This document shows, piece after piece, positions 17,092-23,337 of a stretch of DNA of 64,000 bases. How positions within the stretch are numbered: the stretch's first letter is position 1; every line of letters starts with the position of its first letter. The notes under the pieces are model-generated. The model had not been told where the DNA came from. It did no database searches and saw only the letters and a list, made by a program, of their open reading frames with translations. The DNA comes from Halosolutus amylolyticus (GTDB lineage Archaea; Halobacteriota; Halobacteria; Halobacteriales; Natrialbaceae). Where the stretch lies: NCBI RefSeq assembly GCF_023566055.1, contig NZ_JALIQP010000005.1, forward strand, positions 62,001-126,000. The letters are read 5' to 3'. The position numbers and the translations under genes are program-made.

Positions 17092-17460
17092 TTACTCGGG
17101 TTCACACCAGAGGGTCGTCCCGCTGCGGGAGCACTCGATCCGGAGGGGATCGTCGTAGGTCACCGAGACGGCGTCCATCGACTGGATGTAGTGTGCCGGC
17201 AACCCGCCCTGGGAGCGTTCGTTGAGCTGGCGGAGCAAGCCGGCCTCCTGTAACTCCTCGACTTTCCGGTAGGCGGTCGATTGTGGCAGGTCGAGTTCCT
17301 CGGCGATTTCGGGAACCGTCACCGGCTCCGTAGCCTGCAGATACACCTCGCGCGAGTCGTCGGTGGCGAGCAGTTCGATTATCGCCTGCGGGTTACACCC
17401 CATCGGACCGTCCCGCTCGGCGTACGTACACCGCGGCTGGTCGTCGACTGTCTCGCTCAT
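17092..17460 (-). CDS. Winged-helix transcriptional regulator (122 aa)
   Basis: The core is an IclR/TrmB-like winged helix at residues 25-85 (AIIELLATDDSREVYLQAT, TVPEIAEELDLPQSTAYRKVEELQEAGLL). Cysteines near residues 11 and 22 (CTYAERDGPMGC) and at the C-terminus (IECSRS, WCEPE) might bind metal or sense redox. The ATG at 17460 has a TATATA-type box close upstream. It lies beside the decayed permease, but a regulatory link cannot be shown. Confidence 0.78.
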   Translation of the reverse strand: MSETVDDQPRCTYAERDGPMGCNPQAIIELLATDDSREVYLQATEPVTVPEIAEELDLPQSTAYRKVEELQEAGLLRQLNERSQGGLPAHYIQSMDAVSVTYDDPLRIECSRSGTTLWCEPE

Positions 17461-17569
17461 ATATACCCGTTGTACGTCCGCAAAGGAGTACCTCGTCCCT
17501 CCCTCCCAGTCCGTGGGAATTGATCGCGAAACCGGTCGGCCGCCGACGTCGATGGTCAGCCGCTACACC

Positions 17570-18166
17570 GGCTCTCCGAACGCGTACATCGTCTATCGGC
17601 AGCCAGTCCAGGGCGGTCACGCCGATGACGGCCACGACGAGCCCCACCGCGATCGGAATCTTCGAGCGATCGTAACTGGCGGGCCCGTGCTCGTTGACCA
17701 CCATCGTTCGATTCTCGACGAGCCGTTCGAGCGCCCGATAGCCGGCCTAGACGAGCAACGCGTCGCCCGGCGCCCGGTTGCAGTCGCAGTTGGCCCATTC
17801 GTGTGCGGACGACGCTATCGCCGCGCCTGACCGCGACGACGGTCACGTCGAACCGCTGTCGGACGCCAGCGCTGGAGAGCGTCTCGCCCACTAACGGCGA
17901 TCCGCGGAGGAGGACCACCACGTGAACATCGCGAGCACCGTCAGCGTCGCCGAACTCGCGAACTCCGAGAGGCCGTCGGCGGACGTCACGCCGGTCCAGG
18001 GTTCGAGGATCACCAGCGTCACGAGCAGCCCCAGCGCGGTCACGTCCACGGGCACAGGTTCGAGGACGAAGAGCGCGAGGACGACCGTGACGATCGCGAA
18101 GACGACGGTGATCTCGGGGGTCAGCGCCGTCTCCGCCTGCAGGAGCACCGTCGGGCCGGCTGTCAC
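17570..18166 (-). pseudogene. Decayed SLC13/DASS-type permease with TrkA-C domain
   Basis: The N-terminal 80 residues are normal for the family (VFAIVTVVLALFVLEPVPVD, VTALGLLVTLVILEPWTGV, ATLTVLAMF). The frame then jumps: after 'TVLAMFT' the next frame resumes at a TrkA-C-like segment (VVLLRGSPLVGETLSSAG, DVTVVAVRRGD), so the central hundreds of residues are deleted. Near 17770-17790 a short GGGCG duplication shifts the frame, a TAG follows GDALLV, and the next frame carries MVVNEHGPASYDRSKIPIAV before homology stops. The promoter and GTG start are still present. A truncated 91-residue peptide could still be made. Confidence 0.75.
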
Positions 18167-18366: not shown

Positions 18367-19218
18367 TCAGAGAAGGATCCCGTGCAGCAGCTTGTTCGTA
18401 TAGATGATCGCGGGATAGGTAGCCGGAAATCCGATCAGGAAATTGTTCAACCCCATAAAAACCGCGTTGAACACGTGGAAGAGAACTCCGGCGCCGAGGA
18501 CGAGGGTCAGAACGGCATCGTTTCCGAAGAGGACGACCGGGAACGCGGTCTCGAATCCGATAACCATCCACGCCCCCGCGAACTGTAGTTTCGGAAACCG
18601 AGTCAGGAGACGATAGACGGTCCCGTTACCGTACATCTCCGTGGAGAAGATACTCCCGAGCGCTGTTCCGGTCTGCCACTCCCTGGAGACGAGTTTGCTG
18701 ACTCCCGCGACGAAGTACGAAAGGACGATTTGAGCCGCGATAAACGCGATCGCTGCGGTTTGCGCAACGCTTCCGTCGGGAAACCACACTGCTACAGCCA
18801 GTGCAGGAAGCGTAATCATCGAGACTTGAAACGTTCCGGTAAGGCCGCCAAGGAACCGATACGTGAGGGCGACGTTGGTCGCGAACAACAACCCGAGCAG
18901 GAGGACGGAGACGTGGCCGAGGACGGCGAGGGCTACGAGAAGGACTGCGATCGCCACCCTGGCGACTAAAATACCCTGGAAAAACGGCCGCTGCAACACC
19001 CGTTCCATGAGCGGCGGGAGCACCCTCCCAGTACGAATGTAGAGTTGCGTGATTTTCCAACTCAGCAATCCGTCGTCCCCGAATCGATCGCGGGTCGCGA
19101 AGTGTTCTAACGACGTCACTATCGCGAGCGCCCCGATCAGTACGGTTATTACCCTGATGACCAGCGCCGAGTTAGTCCCCAACTCAGAAAGATACGTTCC
19201 GGTTTCTAGTCCGACCAT
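18367..19218 (-). CDS. SdpB/HTTM-like integral membrane protein (283 aa)
   Basis: Seven or eight predicted transmembrane helices. The overall pattern, including GVSKLVSREWQTGTALGSIF, is that of the HTTM (vitamin K-dependent carboxylase-like) superfamily that contains Bacillus SdpB. SdpB acts with SdpA to mature the SDP peptide toxin. Its ATG is two bases after the stop of the SdpA-like gene, so the pair is translationally coupled. It is the last gene of a five-gene minus-strand cluster with an ABC transporter. Base composition is clearly less GC-rich than the flanks. The exact reaction is unknown. Confidence 0.7.
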   Translation of the reverse strand: MVGLETGTYLSELGTNSALVIRVITVLIGALAIVTSLEHFATRDRFGDDGLLSWKITQLYIRTGRVLPPLMERVLQRPFFQGILVARVAIAVLLVALAVLGHVSVLLLGLLFATNVALTYRFLGGLTGTFQVSMITLPALAVAVWFPDGSVAQTAAIAFIAAQIVLSYFVAGVSKLVSREWQTGTALGSIFSTEMYGNGTVYRLLTRFPKLQFAGAWMVIGFETAFPVVLFGNDAVLTLVLGAGVLFHVFNAVFMGLNNFLIGFPATYPAIIYTNKLLHGILL

Positions 19219-19220
19219 CG

Positions 19221-19796
19221 CTACAAGTTATGAAACCGTGACACGAAATGCGGTTCGTGTCGGTCCATGGCGCGCGAATGCTGCATCACCATAAACTGCG
19301 TTTCCGTGTCTATCTCGGAGTGCGGTCGTTCGGTAACGTAATTCAGTAGCGTCAAGTAGTATACCGAGAGTTCGTTCGAACCCAACTCTATCGTCTGTAG
19401 TCCACCGTCCCCGCACTCACGTTCCGTCCCTTCGAGACGGATCGCGTCGATATTCTCGTTTTTTACGTTCGTTCCGAGATTCACCACGATGTCGAATATC
19501 AGCTTCGTCCGGTAGATCTCGGGGTTCCAGATGCACTGGGTCTTTCTCCCCGATCTATCGAAGAGTTCGATCTGTTTCCAATCGGTTACGGAGTCATCGA
19601 CGCGACGGTCTCGGTAGAACAAGTGGTAGTCGTACTGCCCCGGATGCGGTGAGAAAAAGTTCCACTTCGGGACGAGCGTGTTCATCGGCCCGAGAATCCG
19701 CGCGAGAACCGTACTCCCCCGGTTCGTCGAGTTGATAACCGTGAGGCCGAACCACACTCCGAAGACCGAAACTACGAGTATATCTACTACTCTCAC
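19221..19796 (-). CDS. SdpA/DUF5819-like membrane-anchored protein (191 aa)
   Basis: One N-terminal helix (residues 5-22), then a soluble extracytoplasmic part. The motif PKWNFFSPHPG (43-53) followed by YHLFYRD (57-63) is the hallmark of the small partners of HTTM proteins, SdpA and DUF5819. Two cysteines lie in QCIWNPE and RECGDGG. The GTG start at 19796 lies behind a 57-base AT-rich gap carrying TTTAATATA about 30 bases upstream, so the sdpA-sdpB-like pair may have its own promoter. It is coupled to the HTTM gene. Confidence 0.65.
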   Translation of the reverse strand: MRVVDILVVSVFGVWFGLTVINSTNRGSTVLARILGPMNTLVPKWNFFSPHPGQYDYHLFYRDRRVDDSVTDWKQIELFDRSGRKTQCIWNPEIYRTKLIFDIVVNLGTNVKNENIDAIRLEGTERECGDGGLQTIELGSNELSVYYLTLLNYVTERPHSEIDTETQFMVMQHSRAMDRHEPHFVSRFHNL

Positions 19797-19853: not shown

Positions 19854-21458
19854 CTACGAGGTAATTTCGAGGTCCCCGATCGCCGCGACGCCGTAGCGGA
19901 AGGAGGCCCAACCGATAGCCGAACCGAGAAGTACGGTTGCGATCGGTCCGGCTAACAGAGCGAACGATAGCTCACCGCGCGTACCCGCGTCGTACAGACC
20001 GAACGCAGCCGGAACGCCGATCACGACCAGACTGAACAGAAAGACGAGCACCGCTTCCAGACGAGGGATTTCGACGGCCGCGCTGTCGGTCGGGTCAGTC
20101 CCGCTAAACTTTGGCAACGCCGTTCCGATTCCGATCGATATGAACGGTGAAAGGAATCCGAGGACACCTCCCAATACGGTGAGAAGTGACTGGGTAAGCA
20201 AGCTCGTTCCCACCGTTACGGCAGTACCGAGCGTTGCGATGCCCACGAGGAGTCCGCCGGGAATGGCGGCCGAGAGCGCGTATCCGGTCAACAGTATCTC
20301 GCCGCCGCGACGCGTGGTAAGCGCGGCCGTCAGCGCTGGTCCCTCGTTCCCCAGTGGATTGAGGGTCGCTCCGACGCCGACCGCCACCGCTCCGTAGATC
20401 GCGACGATCAACGGCGCGCTTGCGGGGAACTCCCTCACAGCAGTGATTCCGGCCCCGCCAGTAAGGACGACTACCAATCCTCCGTATAGGAATACTCGAG
20501 GCTGACGACTGATTCGCATCCAGTTCATCAGGACGGCGGCGAAAACGGGGCACGAAATAATCCGTTCGAGACCTCTCGCCCCTCGGAATCGTCTCCGGTT
20601 CGATAGCGTCGGGTCGCTTCGCTGGACTCGGTCCGTCAGCCAGAGTCGGTTTCCGATCCGTCCGACGACGAGGAGACTCAAACCGGCGGCAACTGGACCG
20701 GAGAACAGGGCCAGAAGTGCGTTCGTGATCGATGCCTCGTCGAGATGGGCCAGCAAAGCGATATCAGCGTACCAGCCTATCGGCATCGTCGACAGCAGCG
20801 AGATCGATTGACGAAACTCGAGAAACATCACGAACATCAACAGAACCAACGGCACGGTCACGAACGACCGCTTTCTCCTCGTTTGGAGGACCGTATCCGT
20901 AAGGAGACGGGCGGCGAGTATACTGGGATACACCAGTGCAACGACCGTGAGTACGAGAATCGAACTGGCAGCGATCACCGCGATCATCGGGAAGACCGAC
21001 CCCGAACCCAGTCCGAAACTAACCGCGCCGATCAGTACCGGGGCTCCGAGCAGTCGGATACTGTACGCGGTCAGTGTGAGCATATCGGAGACGGCGAGGG
21101 TCCGCGGTGTCGCTGCGGAGAGAATCGCTTCGCTCTCTCGTTCGAGGTGCTCTCCGTTAGAGATCATCTTGAACGTGACAAAATACGTCGTGATGAGGAA
21201 TACCACTCCGGCCATCCCGCGCACCGTCTCGAGGACTTCTCGGTCGCTCGCCGTCGATAACCGGGTTCCGTAACTGTACGCGCCTGGTTCCGACCACAGC
21301 GTCTCGTACACGGGCGGATGACCGACGATCGCGGGAGCGACCAGGAGAATCACCCCGAGCTGAATACCGATTATTGTCGGTTGTGATTTGATCTGCCGAT
21401 ACTGTGCCCGCATTCGCGTTCGAAAGAGAGCGAAACTCTTGCTTATCCAATCGAGCAT
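19854..21458 (-). CDS. ABC transporter permease (534 aa)
   Basis: A large polytopic protein with about 10-12 transmembrane helices and no nucleotide-binding domain. Starts with a short charged amphipathic segment (MLDWISKSFALFRTRMRAQY). The ATG at 21458 is 12 bases past the ATPase stop; a TTG four codons upstream is an alternative. The size and arrangement fit ABC-2-like exporter permeases that pair with a separate ATPase. A loop near 255-290 is Arg-rich (SNRRRFRGARGLER). With the ATPase and the neighbours it probably exports a peptide or gives self-protection. Confidence 0.75.
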   Translation of the reverse strand: MLDWISKSFALFRTRMRAQYRQIKSQPTIIGIQLGVILLVAPAIVGHPPVYETLWSEPGAYSYGTRLSTASDREVLETVRGMAGVVFLITTYFVTFKMISNGEHLERESEAILSAATPRTLAVSDMLTLTAYSIRLLGAPVLIGAVSFGLGSGSVFPMIAVIAASSILVLTVVALVYPSILAARLLTDTVLQTRRKRSFVTVPLVLLMFVMFLEFRQSISLLSTMPIGWYADIALLAHLDEASITNALLALFSGPVAAGLSLLVVGRIGNRLWLTDRVQRSDPTLSNRRRFRGARGLERIISCPVFAAVLMNWMRISRQPRVFLYGGLVVVLTGGAGITAVREFPASAPLIVAIYGAVAVGVGATLNPLGNEGPALTAALTTRRGGEILLTGYALSAAIPGGLLVGIATLGTAVTVGTSLLTQSLLTVLGGVLGFLSPFISIGIGTALPKFSGTDPTDSAAVEIPRLEAVLVFLFSLVVIGVPAAFGLYDAGTRGELSFALLAGPIATVLLGSAIGWASFRYGVAAIGDLEITS

Positions 21459-21470
21459 GAATGGGGTCAA

Positions 21471-22199
21471 CTACGGTTCGGTGATCTCGATGAACACGTC
21501 TTCGAGCGTCTGGTCTTCGGGCGACGTCACGCGATTTTTCAACTCTTCCGGTGTGCCGGTAGTGATCAATTCGCCCTGATGTAACACGCCAACGGCGTCA
21601 GCCAGCGTATCGACGACCGGAAGGATATGCGTCGAGAGAAAAACCGTCGATCCGTCGCTCACGAACTCTCGAAACGTTTCCTGTACGGTTCGAACGGCGT
21701 TGGGGTCCAGTCCTGACGTCGGTTCGTCGAGAAATAACACCTCGGGTTCGTGAAGGATCGACTGAATGAGTCCTACTTTTTGCTGCATGCCTTTCGAGTA
21801 CGAGGAAATCCGCTTGTTCGCGTGCTCGGTTAGATCGAATCGATCGAGGAACAGTTCGATTCGATCGTCTGCGTACTCCGGATCCATACCGCGAAACCCG
21901 GCCCAAAATTCCAGCTGCTCCAGTCCGGTGAGTTCCGGATACAGGGGCGGCTCTTCGGGTAAGTATCCGATCTTTTCGGTGACTGCGTCTCGATTCGCGA
22001 TGGATTCTCCCGCCACCGTCGCCGATCCAGCGGTCGGTTTCAGGAGACAGGTGAGGATCCGCATCACCGTCGTTTTTCCCGCTCCGTTCGGGCCGAGAAA
22101 CCCGTAGATGTCCCCGGATTCAACGACGAAAGATAGATCACGAATCACGGGAACATCGCCGTATTCTTTTCGGAGACTTGTTGTATTAATCGCAACCAT
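21471..22199 (-). CDS. ABC transporter ATP-binding protein (242 aa)
   Basis: A complete single ABC ATPase: Walker A GPNGAGKTT (Lys42), Q-loop GYLPEEPPLYPELT, signature SYSKGMQQK (133-141), Walker B VLFLDEPTSGLD (Glu159) and the switch His in FLSTHIL. The sequence is of the drug/bacteriocin exporter type (CcmA/NatA-like). It powers the adjacent permease. Codons and base composition are more AT-rich than the core genes nearby, as for the rest of the cluster. Confidence 0.93.
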   Translation of the reverse strand: MVAINTTSLRKEYGDVPVIRDLSFVVESGDIYGFLGPNGAGKTTVMRILTCLLKPTAGSATVAGESIANRDAVTEKIGYLPEEPPLYPELTGLEQLEFWAGFRGMDPEYADDRIELFLDRFDLTEHANKRISSYSKGMQQKVGLIQSILHEPEVLFLDEPTSGLDPNAVRTVQETFREFVSDGSTVFLSTHILPVVDTLADAVGVLHQGELITTGTPEELKNRVTSPEDQTLEDVFIEITEP

Positions 22200-22431: not shown

Positions 22432-23220
22432 TTATCCGTGCAGTTGCTTTCGTGTGTCGACGAGCGCGTCGACCGACGCCCCCTCCTCGACAGCCGCGAC
22501 ACTTCTCGAATCGAGTTCGTTGACGGCGTTGTCTGCGGATCCGCTACTGTAGACGGCGGCGGCGCCCAGAACTGCGCCGGCGGCGACGAGCGTGACGGCC
22601 GACGCTTCCGATGGTTGGACTTTGAGCGACGGTTCCTGGACGGTTTCCGGTGCCAGAGCGGCGGCGTCTCGCTCGGCCTCGGACTTGGTCGGTGAGACGA
22701 CAACTACCTGGTACTCGTACTCGGCGTCGTCCGTCGCGGCGTACTCGCGGACTTCGAACGCGTCGCGATCGAGGTCACCACCGGTAAACGCTGCGAAGTC
22801 GGCGGCGACTGCACTCTCCGTTTCGAGTCCGAGTTCGCTGATAACCGGTTCGCTGTGGTAGGTCAGATCAGCCACCGCACCGCTATCCTCGTTTTCGGTT
22901 CGTGCGGCAGTTTCCAGTCGTTTGTGAACGCGTCGGATCCGATCCGGATCGGCATCGCGGACGGCGCGTTCGAACTCCTTGATGAGGTCCGAGTCTTCCT
23001 CGGCGCGGAGCAGTCCGATTACCCCTTCGAAATCGTCGAGGTCGTCGGGGAGTTCCTCTCCGTCGAGTTCGAGAATCCGTGGCGAACGACGGCGCTCGGT
23101 TCGCTTGTCCCGGTCTACACCGGAGGCGGGAGTTCGGTCGTCTGGCGTCTCTCCGAAGGAGAACGCAGTTCGAGCGTGCGATACAAGTCGGGTCGAAACT
23201 TCGAGTGGATATCGAACCAC
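22432..23220 (-). CDS. Cysteine-free protein with hydrophobic C-terminal segment; candidate peptide precursor (262 aa)
   Basis: Not recognised by family. A GTG start sits 21-30 bases behind a strong TATA box. Residues 1-50 are basic/polar, 51-120 acidic and helical, and 121-200 form a mixed alpha/beta part (YEYQVVVVSPTKSEAERD). Residues 207-225 (SAVTLVAAGAVLGAAAVYS) are strongly hydrophobic and Gly/Ala-rich. The last 37 residues are polar. There is no cysteine. A leader domain plus a Gly/Ala-rich C-terminal core resembles the layout of a processed peptide precursor such as pro-halocin C8, but the cysteine-rich halocin core is absent. As first gene of the cluster it is the best candidate substrate. 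Confidence 0.5.
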   Translation of the reverse strand: MVRYPLEVSTRLVSHARTAFSFGETPDDRTPASGVDRDKRTERRRSPRILELDGEELPDDLDDFEGVIGLLRAEEDSDLIKEFERAVRDADPDRIRRVHKRLETAARTENEDSGAVADLTYHSEPVISELGLETESAVAADFAAFTGGDLDRDAFEVREYAATDDAEYEYQVVVVSPTKSEAERDAAALAPETVQEPSLKVQPSEASAVTLVAAGAVLGAAAVYSSGSADNAVNELDSRSVAAVEEGASVDALVDTRKQLHG

Positions 23221-23337
23221 GAAAATGTATTCTACCCAACTATATATAAATATATTGTAAATGAGAAATATAGTTATATATTAATCTAGGGGTATAGAAT
23301 ACATTATTGGCAAGATTGTATTTTAATACGCGAGCGT
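23221..23337 (-). promoter_or_regulatory. Very AT-rich promoter region of the island cluster
   Basis: About 117 bases that are mostly A/T, unlike anywhere else in the window. On the minus strand TTTATATATA (23241-23250) ends 20 bases before the GTG at 23220, ideal for a leaderless transcript. Several additional TATAT/ATATA runs lie at 23250-23285. This looks like a strong promoter for the candidate precursor gene and possibly the whole cluster. Confidence 0.65.

What the first reader, a model, noticed from the sequence alone, without database searches (positions are those of the whole stretch)
22432..23220. Cysteine-free 262-residue protein as possible peptide precursor
The first gene of the cluster has a strong leaderless promoter, a long polar leader-like part, a hydrophobic Gly/Ala segment at 207-225 and a polar 37-residue end. 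Known SDP and halocin C8 cores are cysteine-rich; this one has none. A Gly/Ala-rich C-terminal core recalls membrane-active or circular bacteriocins. It could also be a plain membrane protein or immunity factor.
Basis: inference. Interest (0 to 1): 0.7.

Follow-up and report, generated by a model that had tools for sequence, protein, structure and literature searches.

The report
Archaeal SDP-like peptide precursor, cysteine-free core
This salt-loving archaeon carries a small gene cluster whose first protein most likely holds a short membrane-active peptide between two conserved flanking helices, matured by relatives of the Bacillus cannibalism-toxin machinery; the same three-gene set occurs in soil actinobacteria and matches no catalogued family.

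Summary
The ORF is real (minus strand, GTG start, 262 aa, no Cys, hydrophobic Gly/Ala stretch at 206-224, polar end of about 37 residues, TATA box 26 nt upstream). It heads a low-GC island: ABC ATPase, permease, a 191-aa SdpA-like and a 283-aa SdpB-like protein. No Pfam, NCBIfam or PDB relative was found. Profile searches found 19 further homologous genes in haloarchaea and actinobacteria. All 20 genes, in 18 loci, lie upstream of an SdpA-like/SdpB-like pair. Conservation has a precursor pattern: folded domain (45-175, 20% mean identity), leader helix (176-192, 32%), variable core (193-244, 14%), conserved C-terminal follower (245-259, 37%, 'ASVxELxxxR'). Three haloarchaeal SdpAB-type loci without the domain instead lie near short 92-196-aa peptides built as leader helix, Cys/Gly/Ala core and the same follower. 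One of these is a tandem double unit. Their profile finds the C-terminus of two close homologues of the window protein (E 2e-5; profile-profile P 5e-7). The precursor idea is therefore supported. The variable part lies in the middle, not in the last 55-60 residues, and this is not SdpC, halocin C8 or a circular bacteriocin. Cleavage, export and killing are untested.

The parts
22432..23220 (-). Gene of the 262-aa precursor-like protein (P262), GTG start
23243..23250 (-). TATA-like box about 26 nt upstream of the GTG (putative leaderless promoter)
   Evidence: position only, inferred
22651..23100 (-). Predicted folded alpha/beta domain, residues 41-190, no known fold match (its last helix is the leader helix below)
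   Evidence: AlphaFold2 model, block pLDDT about 60-85; no PDB match with E<=0.001; no PDB sequence relative
22645..22695 (-). Leader helix, residues 176-192 (SPTKSEAERDAAALAPE region), motif ExxxAxxxxPx[DE]-like, shared with the short precursors of sibling loci
22489..22644 (-). Variable core, residues 193-244, proposed source of the peptide
   Evidence: lowest conservation of the module (14% identity)
22549..22605 (-). Hydrophobic Gly/Ala stretch of the core, residues 206-224
22435..22488 (-). Conserved C-terminal follower, residues 245-262 (EEGASVDALVDTRKQLHG)
   Evidence: 37% mean identity over residues 245-259; motif in 18/20 homologues versus 0.06 expected by shuffling
21471..22199 (-). 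ABC transporter ATPase (drrA/lantibiotic-protection-like), candidate export or self-immunity
19854..21470 (-). 538-aa membrane permease partner, no family match, related proteins in several sibling clusters
19221..19796 (-). SdpA-position protein, 191 aa, N-terminal hydrophobic segment then VPKWNFFSPHPG motif
   Evidence: no SdpA (TIGR04034) model match
18367..19218 (-). SdpB-like membrane protein, 283 aa
   Evidence: TIGR04033 at 27 bits, E 2.6e-6, below the curated cut-off; tree

Best explanation
P262 is the precursor of a ribosomally made, probably membrane-active peptide. A folded N-terminal domain is followed by a leader helix, a variable Gly/Ala hydrophobic core without cysteine, and a conserved follower helix. 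The SdpA-like/SdpB-like membrane pair most likely recognises the two conserved helices and releases the core, as SdpA/SdpB are needed to turn pro-SdpC into SDP in Bacillus subtilis. The ABC ATPase and permease would export the peptide or protect the producer. Shown: gene linkage, conserved flanks around a variable core, and homology of the C-terminal module to short stand-alone peptides near sibling SdpAB-type genes. Inferred: recognition, cleavage, export, killing of relatives, and the exact ends of the peptide (within residues about 193-244).
For: (1) All 20 homologous genes in 18 haloarchaeal and actinobacterial loci lie upstream of the SdpA-like/SdpB-like pair; no significant homologue was seen elsewhere. 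(2) Conservation by segment: domain 20%, leader helix 32%, core 14%, follower 37% identity; the flanking helices stand far above shuffled columns. (3) Three haloarchaeal SdpA-like/SdpB-like loci without P262 carry, 2-7 kb away, short 92-196-aa peptides with leader helix, CxxxC or Gly/Ala core and the same follower; one is a tandem double unit. (4) A profile of those short peptides alone, run on 382 genomes, finds the C-termini of the P262 homologues in G197 and G181 (E about 2e-5); the reverse search gives 2.8e-7; profile-profile P = 5e-7. (5) In the SdpB-like tree the short-peptide loci nest within the haloarchaeal clade (99/97) whose other members are mostly P262 loci, so the domain was probably lost and the C-terminal module kept. 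(6) The core changes type (hydrophobic, CC-containing, polar with Thr/Cys) while the flanks stay. (7) Tandem P262 paralogues occur in two genomes. (8) Related HTTM/SdpA-like pairs sit in linaridin-like and lanthipeptide clusters and near YcaO/SagB genes, and HTTM proteins are assumed to mature linaridins (PMC9927463). (9) SDP lies internally in SdpC (C141-S182 of 203), with a C-terminal tail, and needs SdpA and SdpB (PMC6818787).
Against: No peptide, activity or cleavage has been observed. P262 has no Sec or Tat signal, unlike SdpC and halocin C8. SdpC and SdpA models do not match the genome, and SdpB is below the curated cut-off. The window protein itself was not hit by the short-peptide profile at E<=0.01; only its homologues were. 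Among haloarchaeal relatives the core is only modestly less conserved than the domain (23% vs 27%), and it is under purifying selection between close orthologues. The AlphaFold model is low-confidence in the core.
Confidence: 0.68

Rival explanations
1. P262 is an accessory or immunity protein of the cluster, for example tail-anchored by residues 206-224, and the true precursor is another gene.
For: Long folded domain; hydrophobic stretch near the C-terminus of the window protein; halocin C8 shows that a precursor's N-terminal part can be an immunity protein (PMC11509114).
Against: No other precursor-like small ORF with the follower motif turned up in the part of the window scanned (10-36 kb). 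The hydrophobic stretch is absent in several actinobacterial homologues while the flanks are conserved. The C-terminal module occurs as stand-alone short peptides.
Confidence: 0.2
2. P262 is a divergent SdpC, that is, an ordinary archaeal member of the SDP family.
For: Same gene partners in kind, internal hydrophobic segment plus C-terminal tail; SdpB-like protein matches TIGR04033 weakly.
Against: TIGR04032 (SdpC) and TIGR04034 (SdpA) give no match in the genome at E<=1; no signal peptide, no cysteines.
Confidence: 0.07
3. P262 is an ordinary cytoplasmic or membrane protein whose linkage to the cluster is incidental.
For: No annotated function; no signal peptide.
Against: Linkage in 18 of 18 loci across two domains of life; uneven conservation.
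Confidence: 0.03

Closest known systems
Bacillus subtilis SDP/YIT cannibalism toxins (sdpABC, yitPOM)
   Same: Precursor gene grouped with SdpA- and SdpB-type genes; toxin lies in an internal hydrophobic segment followed by a C-terminal tail; toxin part varies between homologues while the rest is conserved (PMC6818787)
   Different: No Sec signal, no cysteines, different folded domain, no SdpC/SdpA model match, conserved follower motif, ABC pair instead of a recognised SdpI
Halocin C8 (ProC8/HalI/HalC8)
   Same: Haloarchaeal, precursor of similar length (283 aa), peptide from the C-terminal part, possible immunity role of the N-terminal part (PMC11509114)
   Different: ProC8 goes through Tat; its peptide is 76 residues (Cys-rich from general knowledge); here no Tat signal, no Cys, conserved C-terminus, no family match
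Linaridins (corynaridin, cypemycin type)
   Same: HTTM-domain membrane protein (crdG) in the cluster, assumed to take part in maturation (PMC9927463); an HTTM/SdpA-like relative sits beside a weakly linaridin-like precursor in Streptomyces californicus
   Different: Short precursors, alpha/beta hydrolase present, no long folded domain, no follower motif
Archaeal lanthipeptides
   Same: Haloarchaeal ribosomal peptides with anti-archaeal activity (PMC12144867)
   Different: No lantibiotic synthetase among the genes of this cluster

Membership tests
SDP system (sdpABC) | Precursor matches SdpC model TIGR04032 | tested here: not met
   No match in own genome at E<=1; control rings in B. subtilis
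SDP system (sdpABC) | SdpA partner, TIGR04034 | tested here: not met
   No match in own genome at E<=1; the 191-aa protein is SdpA-like by position only
SDP system (sdpABC) | SdpB partner, TIGR04033 | tested here: inconclusive
   27 bits, E 2.6e-6, cut-off 178; 38-41 bits in relatives: distant homologue
SDP system (sdpABC) | N-terminal secretion signal on the precursor | tested here: not met
   No hydrophobic N-terminal segment (KD19 max 0.19 in the first 70 residues)
SDP system (sdpABC) | Internal hydrophobic segment followed by a C-terminal tail | tested here: met
   Residues 206-224, tail 226-262
SDP system (sdpABC) | Release of the internal peptide, dependent on SdpA/SdpB | not testable with these tools
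   Needs mass spectrometry and gene deletions
Halocin C8 | Tat signal and Cys-rich C-terminal peptide | tested here: not met
   No N-terminal hydrophobic signal, zero Cys; no NCBIfam/Pfam match at E<=1
Circular bacteriocins | Family match of the precursor | tested here: not met
   No match in NCBIfam or Pfam at E<=1
Leader-core-follower peptide precursor (RiPP-like) | Conserved flanks around a variable core | tested here: met
Leader-core-follower peptide precursor (RiPP-like) | Processed, modified product | not testable with these tools
   No product data

The most novel reading that the evidence does not exclude
A previously undescribed class of peptide natural products shared by haloarchaea and actinobacteria: a ~150-residue folded domain acts as carrier (and perhaps immunity or chaperone) for a variable core held between two conserved docking helices, processed by an SdpA/SdpB-like membrane complex that also serves linaridin-like and lanthipeptide clusters. 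In haloarchaea the class gave rise to domain-less short precursors, including a tandem two-core one.
Probability: 0.4. Interest if true: 0.78.

Novelty: new variant of a known kind. Interest (0 to 1): 0.62.

Why it matters
To my knowledge, what SdpA and SdpB (and the HTTM proteins of linaridins) recognise and cut is not settled. This family offers two short conserved helices flanking a swappable core, in natural full-length, short and tandem forms, which makes the recognition question directly testable. It would also extend SDP-type peptide warfare to archaea with cysteine-free cores.

Tried and rejected
Pfam, NCBIfam, PADLOC and PDB searches gave no relative of P262, and Rfam gave no RNA family in the region. 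Foldseek against PDB gave no significant match. The protein scan of genome contigs with P262 alone found nothing; the plasmid tblastn scans with P262 and an actinobacterial homologue found nothing; the viral scan with the SdpA-like alignment found no relative, and the viral scan with the P262 alignment could not be run. Weak hits (E about 1e-3, mostly in long unrelated frames) and G170 were treated as chance because a family profile did not return them or matched only 66 residues of an 827-aa frame. Circular bacteriocin and halocin C8 membership rejected (Membership tests).

Full report
Observation. The start agrees with the ATG starts of close homologues. The hydrophobic stretch is A206-Y224 with 37-38 polar residues after it. 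A TATA-like box lies 26 nt upstream of the GTG. The gene heads a same-strand cluster: ABC ATPase (21471-22199), a 538-aa permease (19854-21470), a 191-aa protein (19221-19796) and a 283-aa membrane protein (18367-19218) that matches SdpB model TIGR04033 weakly (27 bits, E 2.6e-6). The cluster is a GC island (54-60% against 64-69% in the flanks), so it was probably acquired horizontally. P262 itself matches nothing in NCBIfam, Pfam or PADLOC.

Homologues. A single-sequence search of 391 halobacterial genomes and then a family profile gave significant relatives in 6 other genomes besides the window's own; one weak extra hit (G170, E 1.5e-4, 66 residues inside an 827-aa frame) was set aside as chance. 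A search with the neighbouring 191-aa protein found it in 11 of 391 genomes and, in a named collection, in Haloferax prahovense, Natronorubrum texcoconense and four actinobacteria. Actinobacterial P262 genes were then found in those four, in a Rhodococcus plasmid and in 5 further genomes reached by group searches. In total there are 20 genes in 18 loci. In every one the gene lies upstream of the SdpA-like and SdpB-like genes, directly or, in the window, G197 and G181, with transporter genes or a second P262 copy in between. Two genomes carry tandem P262 copies, and G197 has a second cluster as well.

The precursor test. Over 15 non-redundant members the mean pairwise identity is 20% for the domain (45-175), 32% for the helix at 176-192, 14% for 193-244 and 37% for 245-259 (similar split). 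Shuffling residues within the three last segments drops them to 7-10%. So a variable core sits between two conserved short helices. The C-terminal motif (S/T/A)(V/A)x(E/D..)(L)(L/V/M)xx(R) occurs near the C-terminus of 18 of 20 homologues against 0.06 expected from shuffled C-terminal residues; the two exceptions keep near-matches (PSVDELVAEC, ASMTRLLALR). The pattern was written after seeing the sequences, so the shuffle count is descriptive; the independent tests are the profile searches below. The core's character changes: Gly/Ala hydrophobic in the window and most haloarchaea, CC-containing and hydrophobic in Diaminobutyricibacter and Granulicoccus, polar with Thr and Cys in Streptomyces-type genomes. 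A membrane anchor would not be expected to be replaced this way. Between very close orthologues the core is under purifying selection, so it is functional, not drifting.

Short sibling precursors. Three haloarchaeal sets of SdpA-like/SdpB-like genes (Natronorubrum L058/L063, G211 L064, G193 L066/L067) do not carry the P262 domain. Near them (2-7 kb) lie 92-196-aa peptides without any family match: an ExxxA...P(D/E) leader, then a CPPVC/CKKVC or a cysteine-free Gly/Ala core, then DASIEELIEARK-type ends. One (L067 13632-14222) is two leader-core-follower units in a row, the arrangement of a two-core precursor. A profile built only from these six short units, searched in 382 genomes, found besides themselves the C-terminal regions of the P262 homologues of G197 and G181 at E about 2e-5, with the next hits at 8e-4 or worse. 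The P262 profile finds the double short precursor at 2.8e-7. Profile-profile comparison aligns leader helix, core and follower end to end with P = 5e-7. A tree of the SdpB-like proteins puts all haloarchaeal ones in one clade (99/97), with the short-peptide loci nested inside it and a P262 locus (L065) branching first under midpoint rooting. The economical reading is that the domain was lost and the C-terminal module retained.

Structure. An AlphaFold2 model from the five sequences that the tool admits has a folded alpha/beta domain at 41-190 (block pLDDT mostly 60-85), no confident structure at 190-247, and a C-terminal helix at 250-260; the leader helix is at 181-189. Foldseek against PDB finds no significant match, and no PDB sequence relative exists.

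Mechanism. Shown: linkage, conserved flanks around a variable core, module homology with stand-alone short peptides. Inferred: the two helices dock to the SdpA/SdpB-like membrane pair, which releases the core; the hydrophobic core acts on membranes; the ABC ATPase and permease export it or protect the producer. SdpA and SdpB are needed to process SdpC into SDP (C141-S182 of 203 residues; PMC6818787). HTTM proteins, with an alpha/beta hydrolase, are assumed to mature linaridins (PMC9927463). Relatives of the pair lie next to a weakly linaridin-like precursor in Streptomyces californicus, lantibiotic dehydratase and LanC-like genes in Streptomyces atratus, and within about 10 kb of YcaO/SagB genes in Haloplanus. 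So the pair looks like a general peptide-maturation module.

Known or new. It works like SDP but fails SDP membership on the SdpC and SdpA models and on the secretion signal. It fails halocin C8 (no Tat signal, no cysteine). No circular-bacteriocin family matches. The archaeal RiPP paper checked does not mention Sdp or HTTM (PMC12144867); Brevibacterium carries SDP-like genes of weak homology (PMC5719810). I therefore call it a new variant of a known kind, with the possibility of a new precursor class.

Limits. No product, activity or processing is known. The window protein itself is linked to the short peptides through its family profile, not by a direct single-sequence hit. Genome samples are partial, and the paper library covers open-licence papers only, so prior description elsewhere cannot be excluded.

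Noticed in passing
L067 13632-14222 (-), G193: 196-aa ORF made of two leader-core-follower units in tandem (CKKVC and CPPGC cores): a likely two-core archaeal peptide precursor with no family match.
   Followed up: partly
L058/L063 6361-6690, 6831-7109, 14764-15090 (-) in L063 coordinates, Natronorubrum texcoconense: Three short CPPVC/CPHVC Gly/Ala peptides near SdpA/SdpB-like genes; the third lies about 5 kb from the pair.
   Followed up: partly
window 17393-18166 (-): Fragments resembling an SLC13-type transporter in different frames downstream of the SdpB-like gene; probably a broken gene.
   Followed up: no
L026 and L027 (G197, G181): Clusters keep the permease but no ABC ATPase was recognised between P262 and the SdpA-like gene.
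   Followed up: no
L087 5148-12519, Haloplanus sp. GDY1 plasmid (G233): SdpA-like/SdpB-like pair on a plasmid within about 10 kb of YcaO, SagB-type dehydrogenase and TOMM leader-binding genes.
   Followed up: no
L060 6982-7998 (+), Rugosimonospora: P262 homologue with an RR-containing, hydrophobic N-terminal segment resembling a Tat signal, the only member seen with one.
   Followed up: no
G000:C2:436182-436793 (L080): A second weak SdpB-model match (E 3.4e-6) in the same genome, in a 553-aa frame, apart from this cluster.
   Followed up: no
L064 6168-6671 (+), G211: DCC1-like thiol-disulfide oxidoreductase next to a cysteine-free short precursor.
   Followed up: no
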